This document shows positions 30,819 to 35,142 of a stretch of DNA of 64,000 nucleotides, in pieces. Under the pieces are notes generated by a model that did not search any database, was not told where the DNA came from, and saw nothing but the letters and a program-made list of their open reading frames with translations. The stretch is from Planctomycetaceae bacterium. GTDB lineage: Bacteria > Planctomycetota > Planctomycetia > Pirellulales > Pirellulaceae. The DNA is taken from positions 1 to 64,000 of the forward strand of contig PBSM01000041.1 in the NCBI GenBank assembly GCA_002726245.1. Direction: 5' to 3'. Each line of letters begins with the position of its first letter. The stretch's first letter is position 1. Both the position numbers and the translations under genes were made by a program.

Positions 30819-33800
30819 CTACCCGCCCAGTTCTTTAATCGCTTGCTCCACTTCTTCGATCTGCTTCTTCAGCGAAAACTTCTGAGCAGGATCGGCCGTG
30901 ATTGCTGCCTCAACCCTAAAGTGCTCCAACTTCTCCCGCAACACTTCAAGCGAGGATTGACCATCCTCAGCCTGTTGGTCCTTGGTAGCCCGAGGCGCGG
31001 TCGGTGTGCCAACCGTAGTGGCGTGGTCAGCTCGATATCGAAGTACGGCAGACGTCCACCATTCGCGCTGGGCCACCCGTAGAAACCTTGCCAAGCCTGC
31101 TCGGCCTTCTTCTGTTCGCGAGTATGGACACGAACGGATGTATGCTGTTTAGTCTTTGGGTCGATGGTAACTTCGAGCATGTTGTAGAGCCGGGGTGTCG
31201 ATTCCGGACGCCCTTCCGCTTCCGATCCGAAACAGCCCGCACCAAGAATCTTCGCGTCGATTCCAGGCTGGCGATATCCAAACAGACCGGTTCTCGATTC
31301 ATGAACGTCGCCATGCAGACAGAGTTGCATTCCCGCCTTCTGCAGTTGCGTCATGAAGCTGAGGTCTTGCATCAGCTCTGGGCCAGCAACGGCATGGTGC
31401 CAGACTCCGATTCGAAGTAGCCCTTGGCTCCTCTTAAGAGCCCCGCGTTCGATCGCCCGCTTTCGCTCATCATCCGCTCGCGCGATTACACCCGCGATGG
31501 CGTCCGGATGAATGCAGCCTTCTTGTGCCCGTTCTGGTCGATCTCCCAGGCTGAGTTCAGCGTAAGGAACTGCATGCCCGTATCGTCAAACAGATAAGAA
31601 ACGCCCTGGTCTGCGTAGGCGAGCGGGTAGAGTTCCTGCCGAAGAGGGTGATAGAAGCTGTTTGAGAAGGACTCGAATCGCCTAGGAAAGTTGTCCGGAT
31701 GGCGCACCGTCGTCGGTTTGCCGTCGAGCCCCTCCAGTTTTTGATAGGCATCATCGCGATCCTGCACGTCGTGATTGCCTGGCACGAGAATGCACCGCTG
31801 CGTCGAAAGACCGAGTTCTCCAACGAGAGACTCGACGAACTGCCGCGCTTTCTCGAAGCCAGTGTCCGTCCCTTTGTCGGTCATGTCACCCGAGATGACG
31901 AGGTACTCGACAGTATCGATCGCCGGGTACTCTTCGTCCGCATGCCGGAGGTCCTGAAGGAGCAACTGAAGCTTTGTTGTCGGATTAGTCTTGCTCGTGA
32001 AGTGCAAATCGCTGAGATGAAGGATGCGAATAGGTTCCTCTGACTTTGCCATTCGAATGTCTCCCGCAACGGCTTTCTTTGCACTTGTGATATCTTCCGC
32101 TAACTTCTCATCGATAGTCTTTCGCAACGCTACCACCTTCGAGTCGGTTTCGGGATTTCGTTCACGGATACGATCGACGCCCTCGCCGATTGGCGTCGTT
32201 GCGCGACAACGTGGGCAGATCACGTCGATCTCGCCGCGCGTGATATTCACCTGACATCCTCTTCCTCAATCAGCTTTCCGCACTGACACTTGATCGCCTG
32301 GTGTTCCCGAATCTCCACTCCATTCATCCGCAGATCCTCTTCGACGAAGCGACTAAACAAGTCGCGGCGATCCCGGCCGTTTCTTCAGCGAAAAACAGAT
32401 CGACATGGGCGAATCCACCCGTTCGTTTGATCTGGCGGAGGCCGCAGTATCCTTCACCCGGACGGGCGAACTCAACTCTACCTGCCGTTAGTCGCCCTTC
32501 GCCGAATTCCTCGCTGACCATCAGTTTGGAAACCAGCGAGGCGTAGATGTTGTCGATCGCTCCGGTAAAGTCGTAGTACAACGAGACGCTGTGCGGCAGC
32601 TTTTCGTCATCCGTGCCGCCAGCCGGAAACAGCGTGGGGAACACCAACAGCCCGCCGTGGCGGAAACAAATCCCGTGCTGAATCATCAGCTCGACGATGC
32701 ACTCCAGCACCATCCGTTCTTTCGCCTGACTGAGCCGCTCCTTTTTCGTCATGCCGGGCAGCGGGATCGTCTTCATCGAACCCAACAGTGGTTCTTCCAG
32801 CACCGGCACGCCGCGCGGGTTGTTGCGTGCGGCGATGATCAGCGACCCGGCGTAACGTTCGTTCACCGGCAACTACAGCACGAGCGCCTCGTCGCCGCCG
32901 GTCAGTTTCGTGCGCACAATGGTGCCCTGCGTCGCGAGCTGATCGGAGACCGCATTGACGGCTGCTTCCTCGTACAGCTTCGCCGCCGATTTCTTGATGG
33001 CCTTCTTGAAGGCGTCCAACGTGAGCACGATCTGCTTCTTCTTGCGGCGAGCCTCGACGTCGTCGCGAATATGCTGGAACAACTCCGGCCGGCTGGTCTT
33101 CGCCATCTGGTCCCGGTCGAGTGCGTCAGAAATCAGCTTGCGCAGCTTTTTCGTGTTGCGACCGGCTCTGGCACTCAGATCAAGGAATCCCGCAAACCCG
33201 CAATCTTCGCACAGCTCATCGATGCTGGTTTTGGCGATGAGCTTCTTCTTACGAGTCTCATCGACCTTGGCCCCGACCTGCAATTTGACGGCACTTGAAT
33301 TATTTTCGGCCTTGCCGAGATGTTTTTCGAGCCGCTGATTCCGGTCCCGCGCCTTGTCCATCGCGGCCCGCCCGCGAGTCGGATCGATCAGCATCAGCGC
33401 CAGCGTCGTATTGTGCAGAAACATCTGATGCACGAGCTGATACTCATCCTGCCCGCCAAAGTCCCACAACACCACATCCCGCCGCTGCACTTCCGGCGGC
33501 TTGGCCGCGGGATGCAGCTCTTCGGCTTCCATCGGCCAGAACCGCATCCCGTGCGTGGTGCCGTGCTCGTGATCTTCGGGATAGCGATCTTCCGCGAGCC
33601 GCATGGCAAGACAGGATTTGCCAACGTTGCTTTCGCCGACGATGACTATCTTTGCTGATGTGTATCGAACGAGCTCCTCAATCGGACGAAGGCTAATCAA
33701 CGAATCAACATCAACGTTCCACATGCGAAGCACGCTACTGTTGTCGCCAAGTGTGACAAGCTGCGGCTCAACGGGATTGAACGATAGACCCGCGCCACCG

Positions 33801-34731
33801 TTCGCTTCGACGTCACACTTCTCGCGCAATACTGTCAGTGTCTCCCAATCCGCATGTCGCCACACGCGAACCGATTCGTCACCCGATTTCGAAGCAAACA
33901 ATCGACCATCCGATGAGAACGACACCGCTGTAATGCGGCTGCCATGGCCCTCAAGAACATCCGTTGTCCGTTCGGATTCAGTGTCCCAAATGCGTACTCT
34001 ATTGTCGTCGCCAGCTCACGCTACCTTGCGACTGTCAGGTGACCAAGCAAGACACGTTACTTCATCGACCCTGAATCCAGCATTTGCGCTCGCTCAAGGA
34101 CGTCCGAATCGCCGCTCCCCGTCAAATGCCATAGACGAACCGTAAGTGTGCCACCGGATGCGAGAAGACGACCATCCGGTGACCACAACAGCGTGTTCAG
34201 CCCTGCGACATGGCCACCAAACCGTCGAAATTCGTTCTCTTCCTCGACGTTCCAGAGGCTGATTCGGTTGTCGTTGCGACCGCTTGCAAGAACGCCACGT
34301 TTTGACCAAGCGAGCTTGTGAGAATTGGTCTCGCTTCCAGGTAACGTAGAAACAGATTTCCCCCAACGCTACCCAGATCCGCACAGGACCGTCGGCCGTC
34401 CCAACTGCGAGTTGTTTTCCATCGGGCGACCACGCGACGCTGTTGACGCTCCCTTCGCATTCGTTAAGCGCTCCGAGACATTTTCCGTCGTTGGCGTCCC
34501 AGATGCGGATGGTCTTGTCGGAGGAAGGCGAAGCGATGAATCGTCCGCAGGGCGATCAGCGATGCGTCCGATGGTTCCTTGATGTCCCCGACAAATGCAC
34601 CGCAGACTCATCCCCGGCACCACTGCCTTGCCGACTTCTATGAAGTCGCCTGCGGGCTCCCCGCGCTGTGTTGCCTCAGAAGAGCGCACCTCATCCGCCG
34701 GATCCAGCTCCGTGGCTTGCTTCTTTGCCAT
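30819..34731 (-). pseudogene. WD40-ROC-COR-zinc ribbon-metallophosphoesterase gene, several frameshifts and stops
   Basis: Pieces in all three minus-strand frames join into one protein of about 1,300 residues from ATG 34731. At least four WD40 repeats come first (SVNSVAWSPDGKQLAVGTADG, ISLWNVEEE, GHGSRITAVSFSSDGRLFA). A ROC GTPase follows (P-loop GESNVGKSC, G3 DFGGQDEY), then a COR domain (NERYAGSLIIAARNNPRG) and a zinc ribbon (KCQCG, ICPRC). A calcineurin-like phosphoesterase (LHLSDLHF, SGDMTDKG, VPGNHDV, GVWHHAVAG, CLHGDVHE) and a charged coiled coil (DPAQKFSLKKQIEEVEQAI) end it. Frame changes lie near 34557, 34360, 34060, 32370, 32250, 31520 and 31020. In-frame stops are TGA 34016-34018 and TAG 32873-32875. 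Longest open pieces: 33925-32873, 32872-32324, 32250-31486, 31372-30869. This is a signalling-NTPase layout with an enzymatic effector. Confidence 0.85.
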
Positions 34732-35019: not shown

Positions 35020-35142
35020 TTGGCGTCCCGGTGCGGATAGTCTTATCCGTGGAAAGCGAAGCGATGAATCGTCTGCAGGGCAACCAGCGATGCGTTTGAT
35101 AGTTCCTTGAGACCCTCGACAAATGGCGCGCAGCCGATGACG
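35020..35142 (-). repeat. Degenerate direct duplicate of the WD40-ROC gene 5' region
   Basis: This stretch aligns in the same orientation with 34491-34613, the first WD40 repeat of the large gene. It shares GCGAAGCGATGAATCGTC, CAGCGATGCGT and GTTCCTTGA blocks plus the flanking TTGGCGTCCC. Translated, it gives a corrupted WD40 repeat. It is a relic of a partial tandem duplication split from the gene by the 34771-35015 repeats. Confidence 0.75.

What the first reader, a model, noticed from the sequence alone, without database searches (positions are those of the whole stretch)
30819..34731. WD40-ROC-COR-zinc ribbon-metallophosphoesterase: candidate undescribed signalling or defence effector
Joining the frames gives one polypeptide in which a GTP-regulated ROC-COR switch with WD40 sensor repeats carries a calcineurin-like phosphoesterase at the position where conflict-type NTPases carry effectors, after a CxC/CxxC zinc ribbon and before a charged coiled coil of the kind seen at termini of such proteins. 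The phosphoesterase motifs (LHLSDLHF, GNHD, HGDVHE) are intact. A nuclease or nucleotide-cleaving effector released on sensing is a plausible model. The gene is decaying here, consistent with a costly accessory system.
Basis: partly seen in the sequence, partly recalled or inferred. Interest (0 to 1): 0.8.

Follow-up and report, generated by a model that had tools for sequence, protein, structure and literature searches.

The report
Broken bacterial WD40-Roco immune-like receptor
The window holds the broken remains of a large bacterial switch protein (a distant cousin of the human Parkinson protein LRRK2); intact relatives keep the same sensor and switch but carry exchangeable enzyme ends of kinds seen in bacterial antivirus defence, so they may be untested immune receptors.

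Summary
Window 34731-30819 (-) is one WD40-ROC-COR-zinc-ribbon-metallophosphoesterase (MPE) gene in pieces: six frame changes by homology, probably a seventh, and an in-frame TAG. Intact single-frame homologues exist, one in a one-contig genome, so ROC-COR and MPE are fused.

The ROC-COR-zinc-ribbon core is a platform. I read 32 other proteins; 31 show their C-terminus, and all 31 carry an effector-type domain: TIR 12, DUF4365 10, MPE 6 (one with CHAT), cyclase 3 (two with TIR). The propeller is less conserved than the core in 11 of 11 chosen pairs. One relative lies on a plasmid near VMAP, MoxR and NACHT genes.

Most likely: a GTP-gated immune receptor with an MPE effector. This is inferred; most neighbourhoods inspected show no defence genes. 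LRR-ROC-COR proteins with swapped effectors were predicted as conflict systems in 2021, so this is a new variant of a known kind.

The parts
34560..34731 (-). Start of the gene (ATG at 34731, MAKKQATELD...) and first part of the propeller, frame -2
   Evidence: frames; homology to L003/L004 N-termini
34370..34555 (-). WD40 piece, frame -1
   Evidence: Pfam WD40 9.9e-15; 62% to L004 over 61 aa
34060..34368 (-). WD40 piece, frame -2
   Evidence: Pfam WD40 2.9e-10
32876..34015 (-). Last WD40 blades, ROC GTPase (GESNVGKS, WDFGGQ) and start of COR; frame -1; ends at an in-frame TAG 32873-32875
   Evidence: Pfam Roc 1.3e-17, WD40 4.1e-9; ROC-containing piece 32876-33676 76% to L003 over 262 aa
32327..32872 (-). 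COR region, same frame, after the stop
   Evidence: No Pfam hit; 83% to L003 over 165 aa; COR homology of the family by hhalign
32250..32384 (-). End of COR and first zinc knuckle (CQCG), frame -3
   Evidence: tblastn to L003 789-825, 62%; open stretch
31489..32265 (-). Second zinc knuckle (CPRC), linker helix and first two thirds of the MPE (LHLSDLHF, SGD, GNHD), frame -2
   Evidence: Pfam Metallophos 9e-11; 50% to L003 over 240 aa
31028..31513 (-). End of the MPE (HHAV, HGDVHE), frame -1
   Evidence: tblastn to L003 1085-1243, 43%; no Pfam hit alone
30819..31059 (-). Charged helical tail and stop codon, frame -3; not seen in L003 or L004; the start is approximate and membership of the gene is inferred from position
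   Evidence: EAD9 0.0037, below cut-off; L003 and L004 lack it; no other copy of a 45-residue stretch in the genome at E<=1
35021..35125 (-). Second, partial copy of the gene's 5' region, a remnant
   Evidence: 91 of 107 columns identical to about 34492-34597; tblastn hits of L004 at 35033-35133

Best explanation
The gene is a decayed member of a family of bacterial Roco-type receptors. In intact members an N-terminal WD40 propeller would sense an invader-derived or damage ligand. The ROC GTPase with its diverged COR domain would be the switch, and a conserved zinc ribbon would couple it to a C-terminal effector: here a two-metal phosphoesterase, in relatives TIR, DUF4365, nucleotide cyclase, or MPE plus CHAT. 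Sensing would change the nucleotide or dimer state and release the effector, which for the MPE would cleave a nucleotide signal or another phosphodiester substrate to stop infection. Shown here: architecture, fusion, COR homology, different effectors on one core, lower conservation of the propeller, breakage in this genome. Inferred: immune role, ligand, GTP gating, substrate. As assembled, this copy cannot make the full protein.
For: Fusions in one frame: L003, L004, L136, L138, L037. One core (A2, 4 rows, 549 columns, cysteines invariant; A5, 10 rows) with different Pfam ends: L003/L004 MPE, L038 TIR 5.5e-23 and L037 MPE, CHAT, cyclase, TIR and DUF4365, 17 further C-termini, 4 more; 31 of 31 visible C-termini. 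Paralogues with different ends in one genome, e.g. G1457: L127 and L130 DUF4365, L137 MPE. Tree of 30 cores: MPE clade 100/100 (6 rows), DUF4365 in two starred places, 5 changes for 4 labels. Sensor identity below core identity in 11 of 11 chosen pairs. Island: VMAP-C 3.2e-33, VMAP-M1 3.9e-20, NACHT 1.1e-20 and 1.6e-12 near L037, MoxR annotated. Adaptor-like sharing: in G1245 the only other place at E<=1e-3 for the divergent neighbour gene is the linker of the family protein (1.7e-4). L003 MPE model aligns with SMPDL3A (5ebb Z 18.1) and Rv0805 (2hyp Z 18.5); DS-8, an MPE-NACHT protein, lost anti-phage defence on mutation of either domain (PMC13092281, passages).
Against: No function was tested. 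Around the window gene, L003, L004, L136, L137 and L138 I recognised no defence genes (by eye). HMM hits to DS9/DS8 are not diagnostic: two 294-298 aa MPEs of likely housekeeping type score 3.3e-18 and 8.6e-18 to DS9, like the family, and other large MPE proteins score far higher (L014 1e-52, L016 2.8e-33 to DS9; L010 5.1e-161 to DS8); for DS8 the family has 46-72 bits against 27-38 in the two small controls. The family is rare: 15 of 397 genomes in the class sample, 5 of 291 in the cyanobacterial order (lower bounds, as only 3 to 5 candidates per genome were scored). Motif V is GDVH in the MPE clade, so activity cannot be assumed. L087 has lost its P-loop. Effector type mostly follows the tree, so exchange is not rapid. 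None in phage records at E<=1e-5 or among viral-contig candidates.
Confidence: 0.6

Rival explanations
1. A GTP-regulated signalling hub of complex-living bacteria that is not immune: the swapped ends (cyclase, MPE, TIR) make or remove nucleotide messengers for development or stress.
For: Cyclase and phosphodiesterase ends suit second-messenger control; the neighbourhoods of five of six MPE members show no recognised defence genes; named hosts are a Pirellulaceae MAG and cyanobacteria, lineages with complex life styles (recalled).
Against: DUF4365 in 10 and TIR in 12 members, CHAT in one; conflict genes near L037; sparse distribution; propellers less conserved than the core.
Confidence: 0.25
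2. The MPE of this clade is a degenerate or re-specialised domain acting as binder or sensor, not an enzyme, since motif V has Asp for the first His.
For: GDVH in 4 of 4 MPE-clade proteins that reach the motif (L003, L004, L136, L138), in the window piece and in fragment L009, against GHxH in L037, L043, L092 and 13 of 14 control MPEs; the exception among controls, L020, has GDVH too.
Against: Motifs I to III are kept; Asp can also bind metal (recalled chemistry); the change is conserved, not random.
Confidence: 0.15
3. Assembly error, not decay: the gene is intact in the organism.
For: Draft assembly of 356 contigs, 89% complete; ROC-COR identity to L003 is still 76-83%, and runs of five equal bases lie near two of the eight break sites printed.
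Against: Six or seven frame changes and a stop in 3.9 kb while long neighbours are intact; no run over five at the sites printed; partial duplicate beside it.
Confidence: 0.12

Closest known systems
Prokaryotic AP-GTPase (ROC)-COR conflict proteins, Kaur et al. 2021 eLife, PMC8195603 (section 15 read; passages)
   Same: ROC-COR switch, N-terminal repeat sensor, variable C-terminal effectors (TIR and others), several paralogues per genome
   Different: They have N-terminal LRRs; here a WD40 propeller, a COR too diverged for Pfam and a conserved zinc ribbon. Section 15 says at least 24 C-terminal domains and names GT4, TIR, DRHyd, caspase, trypsin, FGS and EADs; MPE, DUF4365 and cyclase are not among those named, but the figure and source data were not seen
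Bacterial Roco proteins such as C. tepidum Roco (PMC6337361, passages)
   Same: ROC-COR tandem
   Different: The 2019 review puts all prokaryotic Roco proteins then identified in the LRR-ROC-COR group; WD40 here
DS-8 and DS-9 anti-phage metallophosphatase systems, PMC13092281 (passages)
   Same: MPE effector next to a nucleotide switch (NACHT in DS-8)
   Different: In the DS-8 HMM the MPE is N-terminal and the switch is a NACHT ATPase; here the MPE is C-terminal on a Ras-like GTPase; HMM similarity is only at superfamily level
GAP1-N1 GTPase-centric and VMAP ternary systems, PMC7159879 (section 15 and passages)
   Same: Calcineurin-type phosphoesterase as a predicted effector in GTPase-centred systems; zinc ribbons on their DO-GTPases
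   Different: Multi-gene systems with DO-GTPases; here one polypeptide with ROC-COR

Membership tests
Roco (ROC-COR) proteins | ROC GTPase domain | tested here: met
   Pfam Roc 1.3e-17 in the window, over the curated cut-off; Ras scores nearly as well in intact members, and the 60 best solved-structure matches of the core are Ras-superfamily GTPases
Roco (ROC-COR) proteins | COR domain directly after ROC | tested here: met
   By profile-profile only: prob 96.0, E 4.1e-9, 263 columns against 18 canonical Roco rows, of which two were checked by Pfam (L053 COR-A 7.7e-39, COR-B 4.8e-33; L091 likewise). Pfam COR not found in two intact members at E<=1
Roco (ROC-COR) proteins | GTP-dependent dimer-monomer cycle | not testable with these tools
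   Needs purified protein; L003 ROC-COR-MPE model too poor (pLDDT 51.5)
AP-GTPase conflict proteins (Kaur 2021) | N-terminal leucine-rich repeats | tested here: not met
   WD40 repeats instead; so filed as a variant, not as a member
AP-GTPase conflict proteins (Kaur 2021) | Variable effector domain C-terminal to COR | tested here: met
   31 of 31 visible C-termini
Calcineurin-like phosphoesterases | Metallophos fold with motifs I, II, III and V | tested here: inconclusive
   Pfam met; model (pLDDT 72.6) aligns to Rv0805 Z 18.5 and SMPDL3A Z 18.1; motif V is GDVH, not GHxH, in this clade
DS-8 / DS-9 anti-phage systems | Full-length match over the curated NCBIfam cut-off | tested here: not met
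   L003 and L004 whole proteins: DS9 69.2 and 73.0 of 420 bits, DS8 57.3 and 44.3 of 790 bits; small control MPEs score like this for DS9
EAD9 | Match over the gathering score | tested here: not met
   17.4 bits against 25

The most novel reading that the evidence does not exclude
WD40-ROC-COR-zinc-ribbon proteins form a separate class of bacterial innate immune receptors, GTP-driven counterparts of NLRs and relatives of LRRK2 and DAPK1, with exchangeable effectors; the MPE clade has a re-tooled metal site (GDVH) that cleaves a nucleotide signal not yet known.
Probability: 0.35. Interest if true: 0.78.

Novelty: new variant of a known kind. Interest (0 to 1): 0.57.

Why it matters
[quoted passage not shown] A platform that keeps its GTPase switch while carrying TIR, DUF4365, cyclase or phosphoesterase ends gives a directly testable answer: such proteins would be immune receptors. 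That would link the LRRK2/DAPK1 family to bacterial antiviral immunity, and it offers single-gene test proteins, one in a one-contig genome (L138).

Tried and rejected
HMM hits to DS9/DS8 as proof of defence: rejected after two small control MPEs scored alike for DS9. EAD9 tail as an adaptor: below cut-off, and no second copy of a 45-residue stretch in the genome at E<=1. AlphaFold of L003 ROC-COR-MPE: pLDDT 51.5, not used. Phage records: no match at E<=1e-5. Viral contigs with the core: none of 265 pattern matches is a relative; with the MPE alignment: 2 of 87, both distant MPEs, L143 and L144. Solved structures by sequence: the core matches 821 sequences at E<=0.01, the 60 shown all Ras-superfamily GTPases; the L003 MPE none at E<=0.01. 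PADLOC: partial matches to PDC-S60 (47.0 and 42.4 bits) and 'Effector' (45.9 and 32.5 bits) over the MPE and a propeller match to HEAT-ARM_XIII (28.9 bits), without controls, not followed. VIA-align rows from rank 3 (Z 18.5) to about rank 22 (Z 17.5) are tied, so no closest relative is claimed among them; rank 1 (9a6c_B, Z 22.6) is chain B of an entry titled an integrative YydD-YydB model. Literature on a WD40-Roco family in bacteria: none named in the capped listings; supplementary data were not readable, so absence from print is not claimed.

Rows dropped: L140, L141 and L142 were left out of the tree (C-terminus cut off, or partial core). L088 (G932) and L097/L098 (G1177), partial cores, are not among the 32. 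L008, L040 and L041 are the same contig as L004, and L039 and L047 the same as L003; they are not counted again. The tree used the plain LG+G4 model (mixture off), and the tool warned that the long branches L087 and L107 meet. In one search ORFs begin at the first ATG/GTG/TTG or at the contig end, so N-termini are approximate. The 11 pairs were chosen by me; several sensors there are cut by contig ends (L131, L103, L089), and those of L085 and L127 include a TIR domain. The 14 control MPEs are those I picked from the loci. The 18 Roco reference rows are those of 29 loci whose frame came out right. In searches only 3 to 5 first-look candidates per genome were scored, so their counts are lower bounds.
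Full report
What is there. On the minus strand, 34731 to 30819, the window holds one long gene in pieces. Unjoined pieces give WD40, Roc and Metallophos by Pfam. By homology the frame changes six times, probably a seventh before the tail, and a TAG stops frame -1 at 32873-32875. Neighbouring long ORFs are intact; in the break contexts printed no single-base run exceeds five; and part of the gene's 5' end is present a second time just upstream. In the 89%-complete genome the Roc family gives one other, sub-threshold match (2.6e-4) and the MPE piece one other weak match (4.1e-6), so no intact copy was seen. Decay is therefore likely, though reads were not available. L004's contig is G196 of the window's own family, so the genome is by inference a planctomycete.

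Is it a Roco protein. ROC is clear. COR is missed by Pfam in two intact members, so I compared the post-ROC region of ten family members with that of 18 canonical bacterial Roco rows: probability 96.0, E 4.1e-9 over 263 columns, against at most 0.7 for one reversed and eight shuffled controls. Two of the reference rows were checked and have both COR halves by Pfam. After COR follows a zinc-ribbon-like element: the first cysteine of the first knuckle and the second CxxC are invariant in ten members, while the rest of the first knuckle varies in L083 and L086.

Exchangeable ends. A Nostoc plasmid homologue is WD40-ROC-COR-ZnR-MPE-CHAT, and a Calothrix plasmid homologue has TIR instead of MPE. 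Profile searches with the core at E<=1e-15 (A2) matched 6 of 392 genomes of the own phylum, and 25 of 386 of L003's phylum, where only G241 and G266 match the whole core and the rest little beyond the GTPase. At E<=1e-35 (A5) they matched 5 of 291 (order of G266), 5 of 62 (order of G1001) and 15 of 397 (own class). These samples overlap, include partial matches and the window itself, and are lower bounds. From these and I read 32 proteins besides the window. One (L140) is cut before its C-terminus. The other 31 all carry a Pfam-assigned end: TIR/SEFIR 12, DUF4365 10, MPE 6 (L003, L004, L037, L136, L137, L138), cyclase 3, two of these with TIR. Four also have a TIR domain before the propeller (L085, L127, L129, L140). 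DUF4365 is named as a nuclease domain of short-Argonaute defence systems (PMC10810196, start of abstract in the listing); that class III cyclases also serve in phage defence (Pycsar) is recalled.

Evolution. In a tree of 30 cores (plain LG+G4) the window's ROC piece falls with L003 (100/99) inside an MPE clade of six rows (100/100); L037 lies outside it with weak support, and one origin of the MPE type is not ruled out. Labels need 5 changes where 3 is the least possible (shuffled mean 15.3), and DUF4365 sits in two well-supported places. The ends thus differ between subfamilies but are stable within them. A MAG named Acaryochloris nested among planctomycetes suggests transfer or mis-binning. 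In 11 of 11 chosen pairs the propeller is less alike than the core (e.g. 34 and 60%, 52 and 85%; smallest gap 59 and 61%). The C-terminus lies between the two in 9 pairs, below the sensor in one (L083/L103) and above the core in one (L085/L127). Fast sensors on a slow switch fit an immune receptor, though WD40 repeats may also diverge for other reasons.

The effector. A model of the L003 MPE (pLDDT 72.6, pTM 0.78) aligns with chain B of a YydD-YydB integrative model (Z 22.6, 281 aligned, rmsd 4.0), Rv0805 (2hyp, Z 18.5, 218, 3.2) and SMPDL3A (5ebb, Z 18.1, 260, 4.0). SMPDL3A is also the structure with which DS-8 was compared. Motif V is GDVH in L003, L004, L136, L138, the window and the L009 fragment, whereas L037, L043, L092 and 13 of 14 control MPEs have GHxH. 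From recalled knowledge that His is a metal ligand, so the site may be altered.

Context. The Nostoc member lies on a conjugative plasmid; a NACHT gene follows it directly and another lies upstream with four genes between, beyond which are MoxR and VMAP genes. L091, a canonical Roco protein of Haliscomenobacter, ends in EAD11 and has two genes between it and brxC. In G1245 the divergent neighbour of L138 shares a 38-residue stretch (50%) with the family protein's linker, the only other place at E<=1e-3 in 9 Mb, as the effector-associated-domain principle predicts (PMC7159879, passages). Against this, around the window gene, L003, L004, L136, L137 and L138 I recognised no defence genes (judged by eye from ORFs).

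What was known. Kaur et al. 2021 describe AP-GTPase-COR proteins with N-terminal LRRs and at least 24 different C-terminal domains as predicted counter-invader systems (section 15). Kaur et al. 2020 call the calcineurin-type phosphoesterase the most common variable effector in one GTPase-centred subsystem (passages). DS-8 and DS-9 lost anti-phage defence when metallophosphatase residues were mutated (PMC13092281, passages). The present family is thus a WD40, zinc-ribbon, diverged-COR variant of a predicted kind, with an MPE clade.

Verdict. Observation confirmed; immune-receptor reading probable (0.6), not shown; the gene in this genome is very likely a remnant.

Noticed in passing
L091:4687-7812 (Haliscomenobacter hydrossis plasmid NC_015512.1): A canonical ROC-COR protein carries a C-terminal EAD11 (1e-6, 29 bits, over the cut-off of 26), with two genes between it and BREX brxC.
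   Followed up: partly
L138:6140-6523 (-) (G1245): Small divergent gene sharing a motif with the linker between zinc ribbon and MPE of the neighbouring family protein; candidate partner.
   Followed up: partly
L010:1-1920 (-) (G167): DS-8-like MPE reading frame in a genome of the window's family (DS8 HMM 5.1e-161, 537.6 bits over positions 1-617; the locus is cut and the score is below the curated cut-off of 790).
   Followed up: no
L014:1399-3015 (G113): MPE (DS9 HMM 1e-52) fused to a GroEL-like segment (about 1e-15) in one reading frame.
   Followed up: no
L087:8215-11178 (G1001): Family member whose P-loop is lost (GDTESLQSLL), with a TIR end; upstream lie genes that look by eye like kinase-TPR proteins, downstream a gene with three AAA stretches.
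   Followed up: no
L043:1444-3255 (-) (G241): HEAT-like repeats (by eye) fused to an MPE related to the family's, in the genome that also holds L003 and L089.
   Followed up: no
L143:3500-5005 (IMGVR_UViG_3300037692_000500): MPE (Metallophos 2.3e-13) after what looks by eye like a response-regulator-type N-terminus, on a viral contig.
   Followed up: no
A2 and the ten-member core alignment: The GTPase G4 motif looks like (G/A)A(K/R)xD or similar instead of NKxD in most members (alignments; canonical form recalled, not counted).
   Followed up: no
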